Virus record (IMG/VR): IMGVR_UViG_3300042332_000166
Span: 1 to 28,058 of that record
DNA length: 28,058 nucleotides
Reading direction: 5' to 3' (one strand)
Origin: a virus
Part shown: one piece after another, positions 3,879-26,816 of the stretch
How the letters are laid out: each line of letters begins with the position of its first letter
Numbering within the stretch: the stretch's first letter is position 1
Program-made: the position numbers and the translations under genes
Notes under the pieces: generated by a model
What the model was told of the DNA's origin: nothing
The model's input: only the letters and a program-made list of their open reading frames with translations
The model's database searches: none

Positions 3879-4955
3879 TCACAATTTGCGCCCAATCTGC
3901 CTGTATAGTTCGGCCCGCTTCTTGGCGGTTTCGACCACGTTGAACTGCTTTTTGATGTCACTCGTTAGGTTGTCAGCCAAGCCTTTACGCAGGTCGGGGT
4001 CAAGGATCAACTGCTTGATGTACTTGTACCAGTCCTTGGGTTTGTTGTAAGGCACGAGAAAGCCGTTCTCCCCGTGTCGGATGACATCGGTGTAAGGGAT
4101 GGTTTCGCTTGCGATGATGGCTTTGTTCATCCACCCGGCCTCTACCACCTTCAACTCGGATTTCAGTTTGTTGAACTTGGTGTCCCGGAGCGGTGCAAGG
4201 GTAACATTCACGAAGTTGTAGCCCCCGACATACGAATAAATATCCGCTGCTTGGATTCGTCCGTAGTTCGGGTTGTTGCCTTGGTCGCTTATGATTTTCT
4301 CGTAGCCCTCGTAAACGGGGTTGTTGTCGTTCCACCCTCCGAGATAGAGGCGGTACTTGCCGTCCAAGTTTGCGTCCCAGCGTAGTTTCTGCATCCCCTC
4401 ACGGAGCAGTTCCATGTCCTCGCCATGCTGCGCACCACCGAACCAACCGAACTTGACGAGGTGTTTGTCGGGTTCTTCCTCCGGGTTGGGAATGAACTGC
4501 TGATAGGCTTCGTAGGGTTCGTTCTGCAGAATGCTCACATTTGCATTTAGAGGCCGTATGCGGGACGCAAGATGCTCGGTGGTACAGGTAACCCAGTCAG
4601 CCAATTTGATGTGCTTACGGATGACCTCTGCGAGTTTGGTTTCGTGATAGTGGCGGTACATGATGTGGCCGCTTTCAAGCACCCAGTAATCGTCCAAGTC
4701 AAGGATGACTTTCGCTCCGTATTGGGTCAGGGCTTTGTAGACGTTCTCGACTTGCTCCATGGTTCCCTGACACCACAAACGGCTGAACAGGAACAGATCT
4801 ATTGAACGAAGCCCCTCGTCGCTAATCGTGGTGATGTTCTCCACGCACACATAGTCAAACTCCGGGTAGTTGTCGCCAAGGTATGCGTTCGGCATTTCGA
4901 GGCGGTAATAACTGCACCCGGTTGGATGGGCGTTATAGACAATGCAAATCTTCAT
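3879..4955 (-). CDS. Glycosyltransferase, GT-B fold (GT4-like)
   Basis: A 358-residue protein starting MKICIVYNAHPTGCSYYRLE; this start at 4955 gives the expected first beta strand of a GT-B enzyme directly after the Met. Further features are ILDLDDYW (mid N-domain), VKFGWFGGAQH at the start of the second Rossmann-like domain, and ASETIPYTDVIRHGENGFLV near the end, the E-x7-E-like donor-binding region typical of GT4 glycosyltransferases. Such enzymes move a sugar from an activated nucleotide donor to an acceptor. The gene lies among structural genes, directly after a terminator at 4961-4993, so virion glycosylation is a reasonable inference. Modification of a host surface glycan is the alternative. 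Confidence 0.75.
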   Translation of the reverse strand: MKICIVYNAHPTGCSYYRLEMPNAYLGDNYPEFDYVCVENITTISDEGLRSIDLFLFSRLWCQGTMEQVENVYKALTQYGAKVILDLDDYWVLESGHIMYRHYHETKLAEVIRKHIKLADWVTCTTEHLASRIRPLNANVSILQNEPYEAYQQFIPNPEEEPDKHLVKFGWFGGAQHGEDMELLREGMQKLRWDANLDGKYRLYLGGWNDNNPVYEGYEKIISDQGNNPNYGRIQAADIYSYVGGYNFVNVTLAPLRDTKFNKLKSELKVVEAGWMNKAIIASETIPYTDVIRHGENGFLVPYNKPKDWYKYIKQLILDPDLRKGLADNLTSDIKKQFNVVETAKKRAELYRQIGRKL

Positions 4956-4960
4956 GGGGT

Positions 4961-4993
4961 AAAAATAAGAAGGGCAGCCATTGCTGACTGCCC
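4961..4993 (-). terminator. Rho-independent terminator with GCAA tetraloop
   Basis: Read on the minus strand, a 9-bp stem (arms at 4985-4993 and 4972-4980, one G-T pair) closes a GCAA tetraloop and is followed by TTCTTATTTTT. It lies in the 77-bp gap after the tail-tube-like gene and before the glycosyltransferase gene. It should end or reduce transcription arriving from the capsid and tube genes. Confidence 0.75.
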
Positions 4994-5032
4994 CTCTCAA
5001 ACCTCAGATGATGAAAACCTGATGCGAAGATA

Positions 5033-7803: not shown

Positions 7804-7822
7804 GTAAATGTCCTATGCCCCC
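7804..7822 (-). promoter_or_regulatory. Leader element GTAAATGT-N3-ATGCCCCC, copy 2
   Basis: GTAAATGT (7804-7811) and ATGCCCCC (7815-7822) on the plus strand have the same 11-base offset as at 3855. The start codon of the protease is four bases away (7799). Part of the element overlaps the last codons and stop of the tape measure gene. Confidence 0.35.
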
Positions 7823-9321
7823 AAAGTTGCAAATTCCTCCAACCTCCGAACCCTGCGAGTGCTTTGGGTGATGTCCCGTTCCACCACATAGGCTCGCATC
7901 GGTGATGAGCCTTGGCCTTGGCCTGCCGAGAGTTCGCCCGTTCCGAGGTTGGTCGTTTGTGGGTTCGCAAAGATGGGCGGTGGTGCTGCGCTTGCTCCTG
8001 CACCCGTTACGTCTGCACCGGGAGAACCTGCTCCTGCTCCGCCTTGGAATTGTTGGGCCTTAATCTTGGCGACGTTTGCAAGACCAGCAGCAAGGGCAAG
8101 ACCCGCTTCCACGAACCTTTGCCCGGGGAATACGGATTCAGTTGGCTTCAAGGCAAGTGCAGAACTGACGGCAAGGTAGGTGTTCACGATGGCTTGGGCT
8201 ATGGATGCAGCCTTGGCGACATTGAAAGCCCGCTTTTGTGCTGCTTCGCTCTTTCCAGCCGATGCGATGATGATGTCGTTGATAACCCCAAAGGACTGAC
8301 CGACGTATTTCTCACGCAATCCAGCAAGGTCTTGCTCACGCTGGGCTTGGCCCATCTTGGATTTTGCGTCAGCCGTGTCCACCTGCATCCGCCTTTGTGC
8401 TTCGGCTTGCATCGCTTTGATTTGCAGTTGCTCCTGCTCGCTTAACCTATCCAACTCCATTTCGTAGAGTTGCAGGTTCAAGTCCTCCACGAACTTGATG
8501 ATGGCGTTGTTTTCCTCTCTCAACCGCTCCAAACGCTTTTGGGTGGCCTCTGCTTCCTTGCGTTGGCGTTCTTTGACCTGTGCCTCCCTCCTTTGGTCTG
8601 CTGCGATTTGGGCGTTCGTGTGGGCTTCGTATGCATCCCGGTAATTGGAGAGGGCTGCTTCTTCACGCAACAACGCCTGCTCCCTCGCTTTCGCTGCGAT
8701 GGCCGGGTCGGGTAGGTTCAGGAACCTGCGGACCGCTGCGGTGAGGTCGTCCCACTTGGCGATAAGTAGCCCTACGGCTGCAATGGCCGCACCGATACCC
8801 GTAGCAAGGAGGGCGATTCTAAACGCCTTCATAGCCCCGGTACTTGCCCCGACTGCTGTTGCGTAGAGGGCTTGTGCTGCTGCCTGCCCTTGGGTGATTA
8901 GAATAGAGTCCTTGTTGAGCAGGTTGGCTACCTGCTGCACTCCAGTAGCGAGAGCCATGGCCCCTTGGACCTTGAGCAACGATTTCTGCAAGTCCTCGTT
9001 CTCGGAGCCGAACAACGCTGCTGCACCTTGGGCGATTTGAAACCCTGCCGTTATCCCCTGCACCGCTGAAACAACGGTGTCAATCCTTACGGTGTCGCTT
9101 GCAAGGGTCTTGATTCGCTGCGAGGTGTCCCCAATTTGGTCTTTGAGTTTTCCCGCTTCGGCCTCCATTTGTTTGAACGCCTTCGTGCCTTCTTGTCCCG
9201 CCAAGGACATATCAATAAGCGTCTTTTGGAGTTCCCTGAGCCGTTGTTTAGCACTCGTCGTGCCTTGTGCGGTTGAGTCTTTAAGCCCTACTTCGAGGAC
9301 GATTTCTTTAGTAACTGCCAT
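7813..9321 (-). CDS. Tail tape measure protein
   Basis: A 502-residue protein dominated by alpha helix. Residues 20-160 are Ala/Gln-rich helices, residues 167-189 (AFRIALLATGIGAAIAAVGL) are strongly hydrophobic, as in the membrane-active part of tape measure proteins, and residues about 207-345 form a charged coiled coil rich in Arg, Glu, Gln and Ala. A second Ala-rich helix (residues about 355-425) leads to a Gly/Ala/Pro linker and the C-terminal segment MRAYVVERDITQSTRRVRRL. Tape measure proteins span the tail tube lumen and set tail length; 502 residues is short and suggests a short to moderate tail. It precedes the protease gene directly, which is unusual for this gene type. Confidence 0.8.
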   Translation of the reverse strand: MAVTKEIVLEVGLKDSTAQGTTSAKQRLRELQKTLIDMSLAGQEGTKAFKQMEAEAGKLKDQIGDTSQRIKTLASDTVRIDTVVSAVQGITAGFQIAQGAAALFGSENEDLQKSLLKVQGAMALATGVQQVANLLNKDSILITQGQAAAQALYATAVGASTGAMKAFRIALLATGIGAAIAAVGLLIAKWDDLTAAVRRFLNLPDPAIAAKAREQALLREEAALSNYRDAYEAHTNAQIAADQRREAQVKERQRKEAEATQKRLERLREENNAIIKFVEDLNLQLYEMELDRLSEQEQLQIKAMQAEAQRRMQVDTADAKSKMGQAQREQDLAGLREKYVGQSFGVINDIIIASAGKSEAAQKRAFNVAKAASIAQAIVNTYLAVSSALALKPTESVFPGQRFVEAGLALAAGLANVAKIKAQQFQGGAGAGSPGADVTGAGASAAPPPIFANPQTTNLGTGELSAGQGQGSSPMRAYVVERDITQSTRRVRRLEEFATLGA

Positions 9322-9327
9322 AGTTTT

Positions 9328-11727
9328 TTATTTGTCTGCCCATGCTGGTAATCCCGACACAACCTCCAAGACCTGACCTTCGGTTCCTATTCCCAAGTTG
9401 ACCCAATCGGCTCCGTCCCAATACTTGATGTCCCCTGCTGCATCGCCCGGGGTATAGCCTTCACCTGCTGGACCGACTGCACCCGTTGCTCCAGTCGCAC
9501 CCGTTTCACCCGGAGGACCTGCAACCGCTGGGAGTTCTTTGACCGATGGAATCGGGGGGACTTCGTTCGGGTAATCCGAGTCCGTTGCCGGAACAGGGCC
9601 GTCGTAGGGTAGGTAGCCAATTTGCTTGAACACGAACTCGGTCAAGTTGAGAATCCTGCGAAGGGTTACCCGGCAAGGCTTCTGCTGACCTATCTCGTAG
9701 TCCCTTACCTCTAACAACCGCCAACGGACCCCTCCGTAGTAGATGGGAGTGCGAAAGTCGAGTTGGCTGATGTCCACGGCATTGAGCATAATGGACAACT
9801 CCAACTGCATCGCTTCACGGCTGACCGTTTCTTGAATAAAATTCCACCAATAGATGTTGAAGAGGTTGTTGTTCGTGTATAGGTAGGGGTCGCTATTTGC
9901 GGCGACATTCACCGCATAGTACAACTGCTTGGGGATTCCAAAAGCAAGGTCGAAGTTTGCGTCGTAGGGGTTGTCAAGGTGGCTGACGAATGGCAGGCTC
10001 AACAACGATTCTGCGAGTGCTACCGAACCGCTGACCCCGTATTGGTAGGCCCACGTCGTCGGGGCTTCGATAAGGTTGTATTGGGCTATGCGGTAACCGC
10101 TCTGCAAGGTCTTGATGGTTCCTGATAAAGCGGAGCCGTCCAAGTCCCAAACCCTTGCAACGACCTTATCCGTTGTGAAGTTTGCAGGGATTAGAGTGCT
10201 GCAAGAGAGTTCAACGACGTTCTCTCCTTTGCCGTAGAAGTTGTCGGTCGTGAAGATTCGCCCTCCGTAGCCTTCCTTCGCCAATGGGTAGTTCGACTTG
10301 TCCAACTTTGACAAATAGTCCCCGGCATCCTTGTACTTGAACACGATAGTCTTGTACTGATTCGGGTCCCCGTTCGTGATGTTCTGCTCTGCATTCTCAT
10401 CCGATTTCTGCGACCAGTCAACCACTCCGCTGGAGTAGAAGTCCACCCAAGGCTCCACGATGAGGTTCTTGGGGTCGGATGGGTCCGGCATGAAGTAGAG
10501 GTTGAACATCTTTTGCAGGTCTTGCAGAAGGTCCGATTGCTTCACGTCAGCAGGCAGGGCGGTCCTCATGTCAACCGTGTGCAATGTTTGAGGGTTCTCC
10601 AAGCACTCCCATAGGACCGTTGCCCCGGACTGAATAGTGCCAGCACCTCCCGAAAATGGAGTCGTGAAAACGATGCCTATGTTTGCGGTCGTGTTTGCAG
10701 GAATGGTTACGTTTGGGAAAGTAACCGAGTTGTTTGAGAATATGTTTATGCCCGTGATGACCTGATTATCCGTAGAGTTGGTCAGGTTTCGGATACTCAT
10801 ATTTGCAACAGGCCTCGGTGCTGCAACAGTTACCCCAAAATTTACCGTTATGTTCCAACGAGTTGGGAACGAAGGCGCAACAAAGGTGCTTGACGAAGGA
10901 ACCCAATATCCGGGGCGGTCGTAATAACTTCCTGTTTCGTCTTGGAACTGCATCGTGTAGTTGATGTTTCCCGATGCGCTAATAGTTCCTGTACTTGCTA
11001 CGAAAATCGTTGACCCCGATAAGTTCAGTATTGCTTCCCCGGCAGCGTATGGAATGACCAACTTGCCGAACCGCTCCGAGTTAAAGAACTCCGATGTGTA
11101 CCGATACCCTGCCTGTGCGAAGATGAGGTCCACCATCTTCTTCACATAAATGCTTGGGGTCATCTTGTAAAAGGGAACCGAAAACCATCCCTGCGTAACC
11201 ACATCGGTATATCCGTAGGAATCCACCAAGCCGTAAACGTAACCGCTCGCACCCGATGCGGTCCAAGTCGCAGAAACATGGGCCGAGGTCAGCGTGTGGT
11301 TCATCCCGCTGACCCCAACGGTTGTCGCAAGGAGGTTGCCCTCAATGGACTTGAACAGGCTCACATCGTCCGAGAACAAACCGACTTCGTAGGTTACCTC
11401 GCCCCGGATTTTGGACATGGAAATCAGTTGCAGCACTCCGCTGAACACCTGCACCCCGTCCTCCCACATCGCTGCACGAATCTTCTTGTTCGGTTGGAAC
11501 CCACCCACGAAGGACTGAATGTTGTAGGCATGACCAAAGCAGTCCCTGTTGGTTGGCGTGTTTGGTAGGGTTATCGTCTTGGAGAAAGACCCCCTTCGCT
11601 TGGTGATGTCGGCAATGTCCTCCACCGAAAATGTCAGGGCGATGTCAATCTCGCCCATGGTGTCAAGGACGTAGGGAACCTCTGCGTTTGATTCGTTGAG
11701 AGGGTAGGCGATGAGGGTTACGCTCAT
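9328..11727 (-). CDS. Large tail/baseplate protein with collagen-like stalk
   Basis: A 799-residue protein. Residues about 1-130 form a distinctive domain (GEIDIALTFSVEDIADITKR, GSFSKTITLPNTPTNR, then AAMWEDGVQVFSGVLQL) that looks like a distal tail or baseplate hub module. The middle is beta-rich and Asn/Thr-rich. Residues 737-757 are seven G-X-Y triplets, GPP GET GAT GAT GAV GPA GEG, a short collagen-like trimeric stalk, followed by a tip with IKYWDGADWVNLGIG and GQVLEVVSGLPAWA, a pattern seen at the ends of phage fibre proteins. It probably sits at the tail tip and contributes to host recognition. It overlaps the preceding gene by ATGA. Confidence 0.65.
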   Translation of the reverse strand: MSVTLIAYPLNESNAEVPYVLDTMGEIDIALTFSVEDIADITKRRGSFSKTITLPNTPTNRDCFGHAYNIQSFVGGFQPNKKIRAAMWEDGVQVFSGVLQLISMSKIRGEVTYEVGLFSDDVSLFKSIEGNLLATTVGVSGMNHTLTSAHVSATWTASGASGYVYGLVDSYGYTDVVTQGWFSVPFYKMTPSIYVKKMVDLIFAQAGYRYTSEFFNSERFGKLVIPYAAGEAILNLSGSTIFVASTGTISASGNINYTMQFQDETGSYYDRPGYWVPSSSTFVAPSFPTRWNITVNFGVTVAAPRPVANMSIRNLTNSTDNQVITGINIFSNNSVTFPNVTIPANTTANIGIVFTTPFSGGAGTIQSGATVLWECLENPQTLHTVDMRTALPADVKQSDLLQDLQKMFNLYFMPDPSDPKNLIVEPWVDFYSSGVVDWSQKSDENAEQNITNGDPNQYKTIVFKYKDAGDYLSKLDKSNYPLAKEGYGGRIFTTDNFYGKGENVVELSCSTLIPANFTTDKVVARVWDLDGSALSGTIKTLQSGYRIAQYNLIEAPTTWAYQYGVSGSVALAESLLSLPFVSHLDNPYDANFDLAFGIPKQLYYAVNVAANSDPYLYTNNNLFNIYWWNFIQETVSREAMQLELSIMLNAVDISQLDFRTPIYYGGVRWRLLEVRDYEIGQQKPCRVTLRRILNLTEFVFKQIGYLPYDGPVPATDSDYPNEVPPIPSVKELPAVAGPPGETGATGATGAVGPAGEGYTPGDAAGDIKYWDGADWVNLGIGTEGQVLEVVSGLPAWADK

Positions 11728-13023: not shown

Positions 13024-13671
13024 TTATAGTTTGGTTGCTACGCTTATGGATTTGCCAAGGGTTTCAGCGATGGTGTTCACCAAAACGTCTATCATTTCGG
13101 GGGATAGGGCGTTAGACATGAAGTTCGTGGCCCGTGTCCCTCGTTGGAATACCCAATAGGCAACCGACCTGCCATCCACCAATCCCTGCTCTTGCTTCGT
13201 CCGCATCCGCTTGAGTTCACGGGAATAGGTTGGCACAACTGCTTTTTCCTTGTTGGCTATCCAATCGGCCATGGCTTGGGCAGGTGGGTACTTGTCCCTG
13301 TATTGGAATGGCGACCTTGGAGCCTTTAGGCTTGACGTTTTGCCTCGCACCCCTTGGTCAACATACTTCCAATAGGGGTTGGCCATGATAGCCACGACGA
13401 TTTGCTTTGCGGATAGTTCGATGTCTTCGGGGGCGATGGATGCCGATAGCGTTCCCCCTGCATTTGCGTTGGCTGCTTCGAGGTTTTTCTTCGCAAGTTC
13501 AATGACCCGTTCAATCCATTTGACCAGCACGTCGTGGGTTGGCGACTTGCCTCCACCTTTCGGGCCAACGACTGAACCAATCCCCTCCAAAGCGGTTTCG
13601 TCGATGCCCTTCATCGAACCGCTGCCGAACTTGCCTACGGGCTTACCATTGGCGAGGATGGTTGTTTCCAT
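13024..13671 (-). CDS. HK97 gp10-like tail completion/neck protein
   Basis: A 215-residue protein. The N-terminal 45 residues are Gly/Lys-rich (GPKGGGKSPTHDVL), then two helices, then NPYWKYVDQGVRGK (about residues 98-111) and, near the end, AYWVFQRGTRATNFMSNALS followed by a helix. A Tyr/Trp-Val-x-x-Gly pattern, an intervening loop with a Pro, and a final F-x-x-AL plus helix are features of gp10-like proteins that cap or complete the tail tube. This family assignment is moderate. It follows the tail chaperone gene; its start at 13671 has the GGACATTTACC-N3-ATG leader also seen at the protease gene. Confidence 0.5.
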   Translation of the reverse strand: METTILANGKPVGKFGSGSMKGIDETALEGIGSVVGPKGGGKSPTHDVLVKWIERVIELAKKNLEAANANAGGTLSASIAPEDIELSAKQIVVAIMANPYWKYVDQGVRGKTSSLKAPRSPFQYRDKYPPAQAMADWIANKEKAVVPTYSRELKRMRTKQEQGLVDGRSVAYWVFQRGTRATNFMSNALSPEMIDVLVNTIAETLGKSISVATKL

Positions 13672-13702: not shown

Positions 13703-13960
13703 CTATCTGCGCCTCGCTCGCTCCGCCTCCATCCGTTCGGCTTCCAAAATGTCGTGAATCAGGAGCGCATAGTTCAAAAACTCCACCGCCTTCATCGCAA
13801 AGATGGCATCGAACTTGAGAACGTCCTTGTTAGCCATCCTCCACACGACCATCAGCCAACCGTACCCTGCGAGAGGGCTTACGTCAACTCCCCTGCCTTC
13901 GTCATCAGGTGCTTGGAATAGTCGCTCAAAACTTTCAAGTAGGGTTCGGAACTTAACAAA
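13703..13960 (-). CDS. Tail assembly chaperone frameshift extension (T-like part)
   Basis: An open stretch in the -1 frame relative to the chaperone gene at 13879-14448. It can be joined after Phe163 through a run of nine T (13958-13966, read on the minus strand as T-TTT-TTT-TTG), giving a fusion of about 248 residues. The 85 added residues begin FVKFRTLLESFERLFQ and include GWLMVVWRMANKDVLKFD and a helical, Arg/Glu-rich end. Many siphoviruses make a G protein and a longer G-T fusion this way. An independent start at an internal ATG (for example 13837) is the alternative. Translation should be treated as join(14448..13960, 13960..13703). Confidence 0.55.
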   Translation of the reverse strand, partial: FVKFRTLLESFERLFQAPDDEGRGVDVSPLAGYGWLMVVWRMANKDVLKFDAIFAMKAVEFLNYALLIHDILEAERMEAERARRR

Positions 13961-14448
13961 AAAAAACTGACAACCCCCCAAACGTCCCCCACCTTGGCGT
14001 GTTTCTTCATCAGTTCGGCCCGCTCTGCATGGGCAGCCCCGTCGTATTTCTTGGGGAAGAATCCGAATAACCCACCTTCCCTGCACAAGGTCGCCATGAT
14101 TCGATGAAGGTTCTGCAACAACTGCTTTTCGTCGGTCGTGTTTGCGTCCATTAACTCTATCAACTGCCCAGCCGTCAACTCATCCGTGAACACGGTAGGT
14201 ATCCACCACTTGCCCCCGGCTTTGAACTTTCGCTTGTACCCAAGGGCAGGCAATGCGTTCCACTCGCTTATGATGGCCTTGTAACGCTTTAGGACGCTCT
14301 TGGCGGGCATTTCTCTTACGAGCGATATATCGACCCCCTCAACGATTGCAACGACTCCTGCGCGCTTGTCGTAGTCCCCAAGGACGCTTGAAAACTCAAT
14401 GGCTCCGATGCGTTGGAACTGGTCGATGGTGAGGTCTTGGAGTTTCAT
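13879..14448 (-). CDS. Tail assembly chaperone (G-like), with probable -1 frameshift site
   Basis: A 189-residue soluble helical protein, beginning MKLQDLTIDQFQRIGAIEFS. It has a central WWIPTVFTDELTAGQLIELM region and a conserved-looking GLFGFFPKKYDG segment. Size, helical content and a homopolymer slippery site near the end (13958-13966) with a following -1 open frame are typical of tail assembly chaperones, which bind the tape measure protein during tail assembly. Without a shift the protein ends shortly after with KHLMTKAGELT. The tape measure gene lies three genes downstream rather than next to it. Family recognition is indirect, so another tail role is possible. Confidence 0.6.
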   Translation of the reverse strand: MKLQDLTIDQFQRIGAIEFSSVLGDYDKRAGVVAIVEGVDISLVREMPAKSVLKRYKAIISEWNALPALGYKRKFKAGGKWWIPTVFTDELTAGQLIELMDANTTDEKQLLQNLHRIMATLCREGGLFGFFPKKYDGAAHAERAELMKKHAKVGDVWGVVSFFLLSSEPYLKVLSDYSKHLMTKAGELT

Positions 14449-14451
14449 GGG

Positions 14452-14940
14452 TCAGTAGTTTATGTAGTAGCCGTACACCGCATCCCCAACGAGCAATTTC
14501 AGTTCGGGGTATCTCAACGCCATCACTTCGGGGGTCAGGTCGGGTTGCCAATGCGTTTCGTACACATTCCCTTCCCATTCGCCCTGCCTGTACATATAAG
14601 GCACGGCAATCATGACCCTCTTGCCATTCATTCGGGTAAGCAGGTCCCTCGCCTCGTTAAAGGTTAAATGCTCAAAGACATCGCCCATAATCAGGTAGGT
14701 GTAGGCCGAAAAATCGAACTCACGAATATCCCCAATATGCAGGGTTTGGTAAAGGTCCTGCAAACCGAATCGGCTGACATACGGCTCGTGAATCTCGATG
14801 CCATCCATTTTGATGTCGGGAAGCAGCAGGGCGTAAGTTCCGCAACCGCATCCAATGTCAAGCACCCGGTCGGATTCGGTTAGAACCGAGCGGATATGGT
14901 TGCCAACAAAGTCTTTGTGGAACGGGTGTGAGTAGGGCAT
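14452..14940 (-). CDS. Class I SAM-dependent methyltransferase
   Basis: A 162-residue protein with the glycine-rich SAM-binding motif I VLDIGCGCG (residues 26-34), an acidic residue at the end of strand two (DGIEIHEPYV) and LIMGDVFEHL as motif IV, followed by a helix and strand. This is a compact Rossmann-fold methyltransferase of the type found in glycan and small-molecule modification. The start at 14940 (MPYSHPFHKDF) lies one base after the preceding stop (TAATATG); an ATG at 14961 is also in frame. It is grouped with two glycosyltransferase-like genes, so the acceptor may be a sugar chain, but the substrate is not visible. Confidence 0.78.
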   Translation of the reverse strand: MPYSHPFHKDFVGNHIRSVLTESDRVLDIGCGCGTYALLLPDIKMDGIEIHEPYVSRFGLQDLYQTLHIGDIREFDFSAYTYLIMGDVFEHLTFNEARDLLTRMNGKRVMIAVPYMYRQGEWEGNVYETHWQPDLTPEVMALRYPELKLLVGDAVYGYYINY

Positions 14941-14941
14941 A

Positions 14942-15685
14942 TTATCCGATTTGAAGTCCATCGGCTATCTTCTTGGCCGTGCTGGAGTGGTTTGCTTTGT
15001 CAAGGTATTGCCGGAACTCCCAATCCGAGTTCATCTCAACGGGTGTGATGTAGTAGGGCAGATGCCTGACCTCGTAGGGGGTCATCGTCCTCGCACCGCT
15101 AATGCAGACCTGATAGGTGTCGGCATGGTAGAAGGCGAAGGTCGTATCAACTGGAGCCAAGCGAAGGTTGCCATAGGTCGGTTGCTTGTGGTAGCGATGT
15201 TCAGCAGGTTGGAAGAATAGGGCGTTTTCGGGAACATCGTCAACACGAATGCCGAGGCCAATTTTGTCCTTGACATTGAACTGCACCCCGTTAAAGTCCT
15301 TGGCTTCTTCGTCCCGGTAGATGTAGGGGTACGAAGGCGAATCGTACCAAAGTTCACGCATCCGTACGATGGTGTCGTCAGGGCATCCCGAAAGGTCGAG
15401 GTCGGGGTCGGTTACGATGTAATCGGGGTAGCCAAAATCGGCTTTGATGCGTTTGTCAAATCCGAGCCTCCATGCCACAAGATGTCCCAAGTTCTGCCCC
15501 GTACGAACTACCGAAACGTCCTCATTCCCCTTTAGCGAATCGTACCACTCCAAGGTAGGGCCGTAAGTTGAACCGTTGTCAATGATAATGATAGGACCGC
15601 ATTCCTTCATCCGTTGCAGTTCCTTGACCATTGCCTTGGGCCAAGTGAAAAGATTAAAGTTGGTAATGAGGATAGGGACCTTCAT
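14942..15685 (-). CDS. Glycosyltransferase, family 2-like (GT-A)
   Basis: A 247-residue protein beginning MKVPILITNFNLFTWPKAMV. The N-terminal strand, the IIIIDNGST segment (about residues 32-40) and the metal-binding-like YIVTDPDLDLS (about 89-99, with a D-x-D) are hallmarks of GT-A fold glycosyltransferases of family 2. The C-terminal half (LAPVDTTFAFYHADTYQVC) is less typical. It lies one base after the end of another glycosyltransferase-like gene and directly before a methyltransferase gene. These three genes form a small glycan-modifying block inside the late operon. The acceptor could be a virion protein or a host envelope sugar. Confidence 0.75.
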   Translation of the reverse strand: MKVPILITNFNLFTWPKAMVKELQRMKECGPIIIIDNGSTYGPTLEWYDSLKGNEDVSVVRTGQNLGHLVAWRLGFDKRIKADFGYPDYIVTDPDLDLSGCPDDTIVRMRELWYDSPSYPYIYRDEEAKDFNGVQFNVKDKIGLGIRVDDVPENALFFQPAEHRYHKQPTYGNLRLAPVDTTFAFYHADTYQVCISGARTMTPYEVRHLPYYITPVEMNSDWEFRQYLDKANHSSTAKKIADGLQIG

Positions 15686-15686
15686 G

Positions 15687-16340
15687 CTAAAACGTGATTA
15701 CAAATTTTTCGGGACCCGGCCATCCGGGGTTGGTGTCGTGGACCTTGGTGTCGGGCTTCTTGCCAACCCAATGTTCGGCTTGCCAGCGGTGGTCCCGTAC
15801 AGGTTCGCCCAGTTCCTTGATGTGGCTTGACTTGGCCCACCAATAGGTTCCACCAAAGTAGGGGTAGCCGTCGGGGTTGTTTTGGTCCGCCATGTGGGGG
15901 AACTGCTCCTTGGTTATCCAATGACATCCCACCGCATCCACGCCTTCCAGCAGTTGCAGGCAGCGCTCCCAAGCAACCACGTTGAAGAAGGTCATGCTGC
16001 GATTCCAAAGTTGGTTGATGAGGGACGGGTCGCTTGCCCCCTTGGTATGAGCGTACAGGTACACGGCTTCTTCTTCTTGGCTTGCCCGGTACATCTCGGT
16101 AAGGGTCGCCTGCTCCCAAGCGTTAGTTCGGGTTACCACGACCTTGACCTTATCCGCAACCATCGATCCTTCCAGCACCTCCTTGACCGCCTTTCGTTGT
16201 TCGGGTGGACCGACGATGCCTACACGGATTTCGTCCAAGACATTGATAAGGCCGTAGTTGCAGACCGCCATCATGTGTTGATTCAGGATCAACTGCCAGT
16301 TGCCCCCGCAGTAGATGTGGTAGTAGTGGACGACTTTCAT
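15687..16340 (-). CDS. Glycosyltransferase-like protein
   Basis: A 217-residue protein starting MKVVHYYHIYCGGNWQLILN. It contains AVYLYAHTKGASDPS (about residues 91-105), a His-Thr-Lys-Gly pattern found in a group of phage and capsule-associated glycosyltransferase-like proteins, and YFGGTYWWAKSSHIKELG near the end, which resembles the acceptor-side motif of GT-A enzymes. The start at 16340 overlaps the stop of a 33-residue membrane peptide (TTATGA). The exact family is uncertain; the assignment relies on these two segments and on the adjacent glycosyltransferase and methyltransferase genes. Confidence 0.62.
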   Translation of the reverse strand: MKVVHYYHIYCGGNWQLILNQHMMAVCNYGLINVLDEIRVGIVGPPEQRKAVKEVLEGSMVADKVKVVVTRTNAWEQATLTEMYRASQEEEAVYLYAHTKGASDPSLINQLWNRSMTFFNVVAWERCLQLLEGVDAVGCHWITKEQFPHMADQNNPDGYPYFGGTYWWAKSSHIKELGEPVRDHRWQAEHWVGKKPDTKVHDTNPGWPGPEKFVITF

Positions 16341-16438
16341 AAGGTCCAAAGGAGGGTTAGAAGGGTGATGATAAAGAAAATGGCTGCAAGCGTCTTGCCG
16401 ATTTCGATTAGCAGGTCAAGGATGCGTTCGGTGTTCAT
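16337..16438 (-). CDS. 33-residue single-pass membrane peptide
   Basis: A very small gene filling the space between the large terminase and the glycosyltransferase-like gene. The peptide starts MNTERILDLLIEIGKTLAAI and continues with a hydrophobic run of Phe, Ile and Leu ending in Trp-Thr-Leu, so it has a charged N-terminus and one transmembrane helix. Its stop overlaps the next start as ATGA, the same coupling used by neighbouring genes, which supports it being real. A TAACTTTG sequence lies just before its ATG (16443-16450). A role in lysis or membrane-associated glycosylation is possible but not shown. Confidence 0.5.
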   Translation of the reverse strand: MNTERILDLLIEIGKTLAAIFFIITLLTLLWTL

Positions 16439-16447
16439 GCTTCAAAG

Positions 16448-17644
16448 TTACACCACAACATACTTCCCTGAGTTGCTTACTCTTAACTTGTTGAGAGCCA
16501 CATACCGCATCGCATCGCAGGCGTGGTTGAAGGAATCAATGGGAACCCCCGTGTTCTTGCCTTCCTTATCCGTAGCCCAAGTGTAGGACCGCAGTTCTTT
16601 GATAAGGTTGGTGGAATCCTTGGTAACCTGCAATTTAAAGCGTTTCAGGATGTCTATCCCGTTCCGAACCGAGTCGGGGCCTTTTTCGGCAGGCTTGATG
16701 TTGAAACCAAGTCGGTAGATTTCTTCGATGGACTTCGGTTCTGCTGAATCCGCCACTATCTCCCAAGCCCTTGTGATGCCCAGCGTCCGAAGTTTATCTG
16801 CGATGTCTTGGTTCGTGAGGCCCGTGGAGTAGAGCAGTTCTTGGATGAGTAGGCAGTCCCCTTGGCGGTAGATTGCTACGAGTGCCGTAGGGTCGTTGCT
16901 AAAGCCCCAGTCAAGCCCAAGGGCGACGAATTTCGCACGGCTGACATCTATACCCTCCACGACCTCGAAGTCCTCGTATATCGCACCCTGAAGCGTCCCG
17001 ACCTGACCGAGGCCATAGACCTTGTACCAGTTGGCCCAATACTCCGAAGTTTCAGCCTTGACCCGTGCTTTCTCGATGAAGTCCCTCGCACTCTTGGGGC
17101 AGGCTTCGTTGTCCTTGTAGGTTAGAATGAGGAAATCCACGTCCTCGTCTTGCATCAGTTCGGAGTGAAACCAAAACTCGTTGACCGGGTTCCAGTCAAG
17201 GATAACCGACTGCTTGGTCCGTGCTGCCAGTTCCGTGTAGGCGTGGAAGGATAGGTTGTTGGCCTCGTTCATGTAGAGCCTGTCCCTCCTTGCACCCCTT
17301 AACTTGGAGTCATCGTCAGCCGAAAAGAACTCGATGTAAGACCCGTTAGCGAACTTGTACCGAAAGTCGGTGGCGTTCCATCGGGCAGCGTTGAACCGTC
17401 CTGTAACGGTCATAATCTTCATAAAGTCCCTCATGGCCCCACGCTTGAGGTGTGGGATGGATTCCGCTACGACGCTCGTTTCCGTGTACGGATTCTTCGT
17501 GCAATGGTCAATCTCAACGGCAAGGATGGAGTACGTCTTGGATGCGGACGAGCCTCCTTGTACCCCTTTGACGAACCGCTTTAACTCACGGACCTTATTT
17601 ACGGCCGTGGTTCGGATGAACTTCTCCTGCTCTTTTACTGGCAT
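16448..17644 (-). CDS. terL: Terminase large subunit
   Basis: A 398-residue packaging motor protein. The ATPase half has a Walker A-like GGSSASKT (residues 30-37) and a Walker B-like LYMNEANN (123-130). The nuclease half has the expected acidic residues: Asp245 in GLDWGFSND, Asp299 in IVADSAEPKS and Asp377 in HACDAMRYV. This is the PBSX/Terminase_3-like arrangement of RNase H-type nuclease. It translocates DNA into the prohead and cuts concatemers. The gene overlaps the small subunit by one base (TGATG). All motifs are present and the length is normal, so packaging should be functional. Confidence 0.92.
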   Translation of the reverse strand: MPVKEQEKFIRTTAVNKVRELKRFVKGVQGGSSASKTYSILAVEIDHCTKNPYTETSVVAESIPHLKRGAMRDFMKIMTVTGRFNAARWNATDFRYKFANGSYIEFFSADDDSKLRGARRDRLYMNEANNLSFHAYTELAARTKQSVILDWNPVNEFWFHSELMQDEDVDFLILTYKDNEACPKSARDFIEKARVKAETSEYWANWYKVYGLGQVGTLQGAIYEDFEVVEGIDVSRAKFVALGLDWGFSNDPTALVAIYRQGDCLLIQELLYSTGLTNQDIADKLRTLGITRAWEIVADSAEPKSIEEIYRLGFNIKPAEKGPDSVRNGIDILKRFKLQVTKDSTNLIKELRSYTWATDKEGKNTGVPIDSFNHACDAMRYVALNKLRVSNSGKYVVV

Positions 17645-24812: not shown

Positions 24813-24846
24813 AAAAAAAAACCCCGACTGGTCGCAGCAGCCGGGG
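24813..24846 (-). terminator. Strong Rho-independent terminator before the DnaD/DnaB operon
   Basis: On the minus strand a 9-bp GC-rich stem (arms 24838-24846 and 24822-24830) with a 7-nt loop is followed by nine T (24821 to 24813). It sits only about seven bases before the start of the DnaD-like gene, so read-through or antitermination is needed for expression from upstream. Confidence 0.8.
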
Positions 24847-25191: not shown

Positions 25192-25437
25192 TTAGGGGAT
25201 TAGTTGATATTTTTTGCCGTTGTGTTCGATTATTTCGGGGGTGCGGTTGTCTTTAATAATTCCATCTGAATCTTCATAGTAGATTATATTGGCTTGTGAA
25301 TCTCGTATAAACTTGGCCCAAAATCCGTTTGACAATTCAATATATATTGGTGCTCCATTCTTATCTCGAATGTAAAGGCCGCCATTGGCCTTGAAGTCCC
25401 ATTTTAGCCATTGGCCTATTGTTTGTCCGTTTTTCAT
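25192..25437 (-). CDS. Tandem paralog B, short repeat protein
   Basis: An 81-residue protein starting MKNGQTIGQWLKWDFKANGG, with GLYIRDKNGAPIYIELSNGF and ANIIYYEDSDGIIKDNR, and ending PEIIEHNGKKYQLIP. It matches its upstream neighbour at 54 of 81 positions without gaps, by hand count. The alternating Gly/Asn turn and Tyr/Ile strand pattern (x-G-x-x-I-Y-Y-E) suggests a small antiparallel sheet with internal repeats. Function unknown; presence of two copies suggests a binding or counter-defence role, which is speculation. Confidence 0.7.
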   Translation of the reverse strand: MKNGQTIGQWLKWDFKANGGLYIRDKNGAPIYIELSNGFWAKFIRDSQANIIYYEDSDGIIKDNRTPEIIEHNGKKYQLIP

Positions 25438-25439
25438 GG

Positions 25440-25685
25440 TTAGGGGATTAGTTGGTATTTGCGTCCGTTGTGTTCAATTATTTCGGGGATGCGGTTGTCA
25501 GTAATGACGCCATCTGAATTTTCATAGTAGATGACATCGCCATTCGAATTACGTTCGCGCCTATCCCAAAAGCCACTTGGACATTCTTGGTAGATGAGAT
25601 TGTTATTCTTATCTCGAATGTAAAGGTTGCCATTAACCTCAAAGTCCCAGTTCAGCCATTGGCCAAATGTTTGTCCGTCTTTCAT
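25440..25685 (-). CDS. Tandem paralog A, short repeat protein
   Basis: An 81-residue protein starting MKDGQTFGQWLNWDFEVNGN and ending PEIIEHNGRKYQLIP, the close relative of the next gene. The start and end are the best conserved parts, and the middle (QECPSGFWDRRERNSNGDVI) is the most diverged. It starts with an ATGA overlap to the winged-helix gene, and two bases separate its stop from the second copy. The pair results from a tandem duplication followed by divergence. Confidence 0.72.
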   Translation of the reverse strand: MKDGQTFGQWLNWDFEVNGNLYIRDKNNNLIYQECPSGFWDRRERNSNGDVIYYENSDGVITDNRIPEIIEHNGRKYQLIP

Positions 25686-25879: not shown

Positions 25880-26325
25880 CGGAACGATACGGCTATGGAC
25901 GCTTTGGTGGCCTTGGCGGTGCATACTGGAACCTGCTCGCCTGTTGATTCGTCAAAGATAGCGGTCTTCCCGGCTTGCCTGAACGCCATCTTGAGCAGTT
26001 CCTCCCTCGCTTTCATTTGAGATTTAAGGTCGGCATACACTTCGTCTTCCTCGTAGTTCGGGGTTAGGCTCCCTTCCTTGAGGGTTATCTCCGCTCCGAA
26101 GGCTTGGAAGGTCTTGCCGTGCTTCGAGGCTTCGTCGGCTACGGTCTGCTCGGTGGCCTTGATGGTGGCTTCCAAAGCCTTGACGATGGCCTTCAGTTTG
26201 ATGTGGGCCTCCACCGGGTTGACCTCTCCGTCATTGATTCGGTCGGTCAGTTGCTGGGCGATTTGGGCTATCTCTGCCTTGCAGATGTCAGCCTTTGGTA
26301 TTGTGATGAGAGTTGGGTGAATCAT
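25876..26325 (-). CDS. Hypothetical helical (coiled-coil) protein
   Basis: A 149-residue protein starting MIHPTLITIPKADICKAEIA. Residues about 15-75 form long amphipathic helices (LKAIVKALEATIKATEQTVA), then a loop with KTFQAFGAEITLKEGSLTPN, another helix (KSQMKAREELLKMAFRQAGK) and a short tail. The layout resembles helical phage proteins near recombination genes, but I recognise no family. It overlaps both neighbours by four bases. Confidence 0.6.
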   Translation of the reverse strand: MIHPTLITIPKADICKAEIAQIAQQLTDRINDGEVNPVEAHIKLKAIVKALEATIKATEQTVADEASKHGKTFQAFGAEITLKEGSLTPNYEEDEVYADLKSQMKAREELLKMAFRQAGKTAIFDESTGEQVPVCTAKATKASIAVSFR

Positions 26326-26816
26326 GTGGTTTGGGTTAGGATTTGGTTTATTTTTTCAATGATTAGTTCGCCAATGTACTTTCGGCAGATGTCAGCGGTT
26401 TGCATTCTATTAGCAGCGGCAGCAACATAGGCAGCGGCAGCGGCAGCGTAATAGGCAGCGGCAGCGTAAGCGGCAGCGGCAGCGGCAGCGTAATAGGCAC
26501 CGTCAGCCTCAGCGTAATAGGCAGCGTCAGCGGCAGCGTCTAACTCTTCACGGGTCGCTTTGCCTTCGCCAAAAGCAATAGCAACATCAACCGCCTTTAT
26601 GCTGCGCTCGTCCTTCATCAAGTGCCTAATTATGTTGGCACAATGTCCCTTGGCAAGGGTCAGCGGTTGCAGTCCGATGTCGCACTTTTTGGCAAGCCAT
26701 AGGAGCCAATCCCCTCGGTGGCAGGTTGCAACGACTTCTTCTATCGTCTTGTTTCCTGCCCACTCAACGGCAGGCTTGCAGGCCTCTACGGATTGTAAGT
26801 ATTGATTAAAGGTCAT
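26322..26816 (-). CDS. Imm5-like putative immunity-type protein with Ala repeat
   Basis: A 164-residue protein. The N-terminus (MTFNQYLQSVEACKPAVEWA, then TCHRGDWLLWLAKK) and the DERSIKAVDVAIAFGEGKATREEL segment match the Imm5-like family common in phages and first named as immunity proteins. The middle (residues about 97-138) is an Ala/Tyr array, AYYA or AYAA units, encoded by GCAGCG-like repeats, followed by NRMQTADICRKYI. Imm5-like proteins in phages have unknown roles; a real toxin-immunity function here is not supported by a toxin gene. The repeat could vary in length by slippage. Confidence 0.72.
   Translation of the reverse strand: MTFNQYLQSVEACKPAVEWAGNKTIEEVVATCHRGDWLLWLAKKCDIGLQPLTLAKGHCANIIRHLMKDERSIKAVDVAIAFGEGKATREELDAAADAAYYAEADGAYYAAAAAAAYAAAAYYAAAAAAYVAAAANRMQTADICRKYIGELIIEKINQILTQTT
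26407..26545. repeat. GGCAGC-type microsatellite coding for poly-Ala
   Basis: Plus strand runs of GGCAGC units are broken by GTAATA at partly regular distance, for example GGCAGCGGCAGCGTAATA. In the protein this is the alternation of Ala runs with Tyr-Tyr. Confidence 0.85.

What the first reader, a model, noticed from the sequence alone, without database searches (positions are those of the whole stretch)
13703..14448. Probable programmed -1 frameshift in the tail assembly chaperone gene
The 189-residue gene contains nine consecutive T on its coding strand (13966 to 13958), phased as AGT TTT TTT TTG. A -1 slip there enters an open frame that runs on to 13703, giving a product of about 248 residues. 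Frameshifted G/G-T chaperones are well established in siphoviruses. Both reading frames after the slip look protein-like.
Basis: partly seen in the sequence, partly recalled or inferred. Interest (0 to 1): 0.6.

Follow-up and report, generated by a model that had tools for sequence, protein, structure and literature searches.

The report
Conserved slippage site in phage chaperone gene
A run of nine or ten T's, never fewer in every one of some 260 related environmental virus sequences that span the site, lets these phages make two versions of a probable tail-building helper protein from one gene, and the pattern suggests that it is the RNA-copying enzyme, rather than the ribosome, that stutters there.

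Summary
In a 189-codon gene (14448-13879, minus strand) nine T's (13966-13958) sit as AGT TTT TTT TTG, and the -1 frame stays open to 13703, giving a 248-residue fusion. It is not chance. In the close family (80 contigs plus the window) the run is invariant, and the -1 frame evolves as protein (48 of 58 third codon positions vary, pN/pS 0.017, 4 distinct peptides from 56 DNA sequences). Searches with the terminase or with the downstream domain, which do not select for the run, and with a related chaperone gave about 180 divergent loci. All that span the site carry T9 or T10, none fewer. The family includes gp38/gp39 of Nonlabens phage P12024S, annotated there as two hypothetical genes.

The gene is best read as a G / G-T tail assembly chaperone, although no profile or fold search confirms that. 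Run length, not codon phase, is conserved: when one flanking T is lost, another is gained on the other side (four independent cases). No RNA structure accompanies the run. This favours transcriptional slippage over ribosomal -1 frameshifting, without proving it. A second, unrelated chaperone family of Bacteroidota phages carries A9-A11 at its junction. Verdict: real recoding, a new variant of a known kind.

The parts
13879..14448 (-). 0-frame ORF, 189 aa: short product, G-like protein of the putative tail assembly chaperone
   Evidence: AlphaFold2 model mean pLDDT 88.5, almost all helical; pN/pS 0.040 in the close family; fold match to P12024S gp38 at E 9e-7
13958..13966 (-). T9 slippage run, AGT TTT TTT TTG in frame 0
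   Evidence: invariant in 80 close relatives; T9 or T10 in all divergent loci that span the site
13960..13966 (-). in-frame heptamer T_TTT_TTT contained in the run (what a ribosomal -1 slip would need)
   Evidence: in frame in 180 of 180 loci
13703..13966 (-). -1 frame extension, about 87 codons: T-like domain (linker plus predicted three-helix C-terminal part)
   Evidence: third-position variation in the -1 frame, pN/pS 0.017; conserved F..KWGWY..LA.GD motif in relatives; model; C-terminal 50 residues at pLDDT 85-88
13703..14448 (-). whole recoded gene; G-T fusion of 248 aa when one U is added (or two are lost, or the ribosome slips -1)
13024..13671 (-). next gene; its homologue also follows the homologous gene pair in P12024S (gp42, one small gene further on); tail/neck-type protein by position
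   Evidence: (phrog_29822)
7813..9321 (-). tape measure protein, downstream on the same strand with three genes in between
   Evidence: PHROG tail length tape measure protein, E 1e-11
16448..17644 (-). terminase large subunit, upstream; used to fetch divergent relatives without selecting for the run

Best explanation
The gene is the tail assembly chaperone of a tailed phage related to Inhavirus (Bacteroidota hosts). It makes two proteins. Faithful expression gives the 189-residue G-like protein. On the T9 run the nascent RNA is held by a weak hybrid of nine U:A pairs; RNA polymerase slips there and adds one U in a fraction of transcripts, and normal translation of those gives the 248-residue G-T fusion. 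Shown by sequence: a conserved run of 9 or more, a -1 frame under purifying selection, no independent start in many relatives. Inferred: that the proteins are G and G-T of the lambda type, and that the slip is transcriptional rather than ribosomal. The recoding itself I hold at about 0.97; the confidence below is for the transcriptional mechanism.
For: The run has at least 9 T's in every locus that spans the site: 80 close relatives, 72 loci found by terminase, 31 found by a related chaperone, 79 found by the T domain without its first 12 residues. T8 runs occur elsewhere in these loci (35 in 1,050 kb), yet none is at this site. The T's beyond the heptamer are split 1+1, 1+2, 2+1, 2+0 or 0+2, never fewer than two in sum. 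On the tree there are 14 changes among these states, including four independent losses of one flanking T, each made good on the other side. A ribosomal heptamer needs seven T's and would not need this. Nine is the length from which A/T runs are avoided in genes of many bacteria and used for transcriptional slippage (PMC1088944), and fits the 9-10 bp RNA-DNA hybrid (PMC5009743). P2-like phages, read as ribosomal, use T6G or T7G/T7C (PMC3931495). No excess RNA structure lies 3' or 5' of the run (51 representatives, mean z -0.10, 0.03, 0.12; controls -0.01, -0.04). The -1 frame is protein-coding. 98 of 102 loci have no ATG, and 38 no ATG/GTG/TTG, that could start the T domain separately. An unrelated chaperone family has A9-A11 with three AAA Lys codons at its junction in 10 divergent members (P about 8e-7 from codon usage).
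Against: No RNA or protein data. Any run of 9 or more contains an in-frame U_UUU_UUU, so ribosomal slippage is possible in every case, and a longer run might simply raise its rate. Lambda's own G-T shift is low-level, so absence of RNA structure is weak evidence. The T in the fourth codon is partly explained by the -1 frame residue (Leu/Phe). Chaperone identity is not confirmed by PDB fold search (HK97 gp13 only at E 8.2), Pfam or PHROG. Three genes separate it from the tape measure gene. Of the other Bacteroidota isolates looked at, RAP44 and 6H show no run of 8 or more at the presumed junction.
Confidence: 0.6

Rival explanations
1. Programmed ribosomal -1 frameshifting on U_UUU_UUU, as in lambda G/G-T and P2 E/E': two Phe tRNAs slip back one base and translation goes on in the -1 frame.
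For: Heptamer in frame 0 in 180 of 180 loci. T6G and T7G/T7C sites are described for tail genes of P2-like phages (PMC3931495). -1 frameshifting is the standard mechanism for this gene in most tailed phages (PMC5009743).
Against: Needs seven T's, yet at least nine are kept in all loci in three different phases with compensating changes. No RNA structure on either side.
Confidence: 0.35
2. Two separate overlapping genes: the -1 frame ORF is expressed from its own start (as annotated for gp39 of P12024S) and the T run is incidental.
For: P12024S records list gp38 and gp39 as separate genes.
Against: 98 of 102 loci have no ATG and 38 have no ATG/GTG/TTG between the last -1 stop and the conserved W motif. 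Some close relatives have a -1 stop directly before the run (L036, L045). The invariant run would be unexplained.
Confidence: 0.03
3. Sequencing or assembly artefact, or a phase-variable tract changed by replication slippage.
For: Homopolymers are error-prone; BF8P1 in another family has A11 where relatives have A10.
Against: T9 or T10, both out of frame, in some 260 contigs from many samples, with no T8 or T11. A phase-variable tract would show in-frame and out-of-frame lengths.
Confidence: 0.01
4. Real recoding, but the protein pair is not a tail assembly chaperone (independent of which machine slips).
For: No PHROG, Pfam or PDB family confirms the function. The gene is not adjacent to the tape measure gene.
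Against: Same-strand position between packaging and tail genes, the short/long architecture, helical fold, and weak fold matches to annotated chaperones (E 0.06 and 0.34) all fit G/G-T.
Confidence: 0.15

Closest known systems
Phage lambda G / G-T tail assembly chaperones
   Same: Short and long product from overlapping frames, the long one through a -1 frame change near the end of the first gene; gene lies in the structural block
   Different: Lambda is a ribosomal -1 shift (PMC5009743). Here a homopolymer of 9 or more takes the place of the mixed heptamer, no sequence or solved-fold similarity was found, and the gene is not next to the tape measure gene
P2-like E / E+E' (T6G, T7G, T7C slippery sites)
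   Same: T run at the -1 shift point of a tail assembly gene (PMC3931495)
   Different: P2-type runs are 6-7 T's; here 9-10 and never fewer
Thermus thermophilus dnaX and IS elements with A9/T9 transcriptional slippage
   Same: Nine A/T, frame change by a slipping polymerase, stop codons close by in other frames (PMC1088944, PMC5009743)
   Different: Different gene; in this phage the DNA is out of frame and slippage would yield the longer product
Nonlabens phage P12024S gp38/gp39 (phrog_32199 / phrog_38404)
   Same: Homologous pair by fold (E 9e-7) and position, T9 at the junction, -1 frame open
   Different: About 16% protein identity, run in another codon phase (CTT TTT TTT TAT); annotated as separate hypothetical genes

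Membership tests
G / G-T tail assembly chaperone (lambda type) | Two overlapping frames joined by a frame change near the end of the first | tested here: met
G / G-T tail assembly chaperone (lambda type) | Sequence or fold similarity to a known chaperone | tested here: not met
   PHROG, Pfam, PDB sequence: none; PDB fold: HK97 gp13 at E 8.2; viral fold library: annotated chaperones only at E 0.06 and 0.34. Known members share little sequence among themselves (PMC5009743), so this lowers the claim only moderately
G / G-T tail assembly chaperone (lambda type) | Gene directly upstream of the tape measure gene | tested here: not met
   same strand and upstream, but three genes lie between
G / G-T tail assembly chaperone (lambda type) | Long product binds tail tube protein, G part binds the tape measure; neither in the virion | not testable with these tools
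   needs biochemistry
Ribosomal -1 frameshift site | X_XXY_YYZ heptamer in frame 0 | tested here: met
   T_TTT_TTT in 180 of 180
Ribosomal -1 frameshift site | Stimulatory RNA structure | tested here: not met
   not all bacterial sites have one
Transcriptional slippage site | A or T homopolymer of about 8-9 or more, length conserved irrespective of codon phase | tested here: met
   length criterion from PMC1088944 and PMC5009743
Transcriptional slippage site | mRNA population with more or fewer U than the DNA | not testable with these tools
   no RNA data held

The most novel reading that the evidence does not exclude
Tailed phages of Bacteroidota have, in several unrelated chaperone families, moved the G/G-T decision from the ribosome to RNA polymerase: T9-T10 in the Inhavirus-like and window family (out of frame), A9-A11 in the B40-8/B124-14/Croceibacter/Flavobacterium/Elizabethkingia family (in frame in most, with stops close by in both other frames), A8-A9 in the 11b/phi10:1 family.
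Probability: 0.45. Interest if true: 0.75.

Novelty: new variant of a known kind. Interest (0 to 1): 0.58.

Why it matters
G/G-T frameshifting is a textbook case of programmed ribosomal frameshifting and fixes the ratio of the proteins that build the tail. If large groups of abundant aquatic and gut phages set that ratio by polymerase slippage instead, the same regulatory need has been met by a different machine, and a specific, cheap test (count U's in the mRNA) decides it. It also corrects annotation: phrog_32199 and phrog_38404, and gp38/gp39 of P12024S, are two parts of one product that has no function assigned in those databases.

Tried and rejected
Named phages and bacterial genomes gave no hit for the 248-residue fusion. 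Two searches with very diverse alignments had no conserved stretch. PDB fold search of the G model and PDB sequence searches of both profiles gave nothing significant. Conserved RNA structure near the run: tested and rejected. Rapid closure of the third frame as a sign of selection: one T less gives a stop after a median of 2 codons, but the baseline is 5, so it is weak. Homology of the T9 family with the A10 family: hhalign probability under 1%, rejected. Independent start for the T domain: rejected in most loci. For RAP44, 6H and P12002S no clear homopolymer junction was found.

Full report
Observation. The window is a 28,058-base virus record. On its minus strand an ORF of 189 codons (14448-13879) holds nine T's at 13966-13958 in the phase AGT TTT TTT TTG, and the -1 frame is open to a stop at 13703. 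Reading the transcript with ten U's instead of nine gives 248 residues; with eight, 164. A run of nine A or T somewhere in 28 kb is not surprising in itself (0.7 expected), so the question is conservation.

Close family. A scan with the 189-residue protein gave 80 contigs at 98-100% protein identity. All have exactly T9, and all that reach far enough have the same -1 stop. Among 56 distinct full-length sequences, the stretch after the 0-frame stop varies at 48 of 58 third positions of the -1 frame but at 1 of 58 second positions. pN/pS is 0.017 in the -1 frame, against 2.3 and 4.7 in the other two. The 56 DNA sequences encode only 4 distinct -1 peptides, none with a stop. The T run does not vary at all, though 117 of 160 third positions of the upstream part do.

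Distant family. The nearest isolates are Nonlabens phages P12024S/L. Their gp38 has T9 (CTT TTT TTT TAT), and its -1 frame contains the separately annotated gp39. A scan with a terminase alignment, which cannot select for the run, gave 80 loci. Every locus that spans the chaperone site (72 read in full) has T9 or T10 with an open -1 frame; the rest end before it. A scan with a related chaperone gave 31 more places, all T9. A scan with the T domain cut 12 residues after the run gave 79 loci checked: 59 T9, 20 T10, none shorter. A few contigs were found by more than one scan. In 1,050 kb of these loci there are 35 T8 runs but 140 T9 and 27 T10, most of the latter two at this site.

Not two genes. 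In 98 of 102 loci there is no ATG, and in 38 no ATG, GTG or TTG, that could start the -1 frame before its conserved W motif. Some members have a -1 stop directly before the run.

Mechanism. The run occurs in all three codon phases (GTT TTT TTT TAC; TTT TTT TTT GTG; AGT TTT TTT TTG). Counting T's outside the heptamer T_TTT_TTT, 159 distinct proteins show 1+1 (131), 1+2 (16), 2+1 (6), 2+0 (4) and 0+2 (2), never fewer than two. On a tree built without the run there are 14 changes among these states, and the change to 2+0 or 0+2 happened four times. So loss of a T on one side goes with a gain on the other. A ribosome needs the seven T's only; P2-like phages are described with T6G, T7G or T7C (PMC3931495). 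Nine is the length at which genes of many bacteria avoid A/T runs and at which slippage is exploited (PMC1088944; PMC5009743). No RNA structure beyond chance lies next to the run. I therefore favour transcriptional slippage at about two to one. An in-frame U_UUU_UUU is present in every case, so ribosomal slippage is not excluded.

Function. The G-like part is predicted with good confidence as an almost all-helical protein (pLDDT 88.5). It matches other uncharacterised phage proteins, among them P12024S gp38 (E 9e-7) and a protein of Flavobacterium phage 6H (E 2e-4), and annotated chaperones only at E 0.06 and 0.34. The T part is modelled as a poor linker and a better three-helix end. No Pfam, PHROG or PDB match gives a function. 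phrog_32199 and phrog_38404, which the relatives match, have no assigned function. The chaperone name rests on architecture, on place in the structural block and on the tape measure gene downstream. Some library proteins match both the G and the T model (A0A516L611, A0A6J5N0W0), which suggests relatives fused in one frame; I could not fetch their DNA.

Beyond this family. In Bacteroides phage B124-14 and relatives the gene annotated in some records as tail assembly chaperone is one ORF of about 250 codons with A10 at codon 132. All 14 members read (Bacteroides, Parabacteroides, Alistipes, Elizabethkingia, Croceibacter, Flavobacterium) have A9-A11 there; BF8P1 has A11 and is split. Three successive Lys are AAA in all ten divergent members, although AAG makes up a third of Lys elsewhere in the genes (P about 8e-7). 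One A more or less gives a product of about 131-159 residues. This family is not detectably related to the T9 family. Croceibacter P2559S has A8 and is out of frame; Flavobacterium 11b and Cellulophaga phi10:1 have A9 and A8 at the junction of another pair. RAP44 and 6H do not show it, so it is common but not general. I found no paper in the library that describes transcriptional slippage for a tail assembly chaperone; the library is incomplete.

Noticed in passing
L300-L313 (Bacteroides, Parabacteroides, Alistipes, Elizabethkingia, Croceibacter, Flavobacterium phages): A9-A11 run at codon 126-132 of a single-frame tail assembly chaperone gene in all 14 members read, with stops close by in both other frames; BF8P1 (A11) is split. 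Looks like a Thermus dnaX-type slippage site.
   Followed up: partly
L166 18173 (Flavobacterium phage 11b), L210 36889 (Cellulophaga phage phi10:1), L168 14747 (Croceibacter phage P2559S): A9, A8 and A8 at the junction of two overlapping genes just upstream of the presumed tape measure gene; the fused frame would need one A more (11b) or one A less / two more (the other two).
   Followed up: partly
L209 10352-10927 (Flavobacterium phage 6H gp10): Probable fold relative of the window protein without a long T run; its PHROG family (25418) has a 293-position profile, so relatives may be fused in one frame.
   Followed up: no
window 14452-16349 and 3879-5000: A methyltransferase-like and several glycosyltransferase-like genes (by eye from the translations) lie between terminase and chaperone and between structural genes; P12024S has none between its terminase and chaperone genes.
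   Followed up: no
window 24813-24821: A second nine-base run (T9 on the minus strand) a few bases upstream of the start of the gene 24806-24102.
   Followed up: no
window 25192-25685: Two adjacent 81-codon genes that are clear tandem duplicates of each other (MK.GQT.GQWL.WDF).
   Followed up: no
window 26322-26816: Protein with a long alanine/tyrosine-rich low-complexity stretch.
   Followed up: no
window 9328-11727: C-terminal part of a large tail-module protein holds a short collagen-like stretch (GPPGETGATGATGAVGPAGEG).
   Followed up: no
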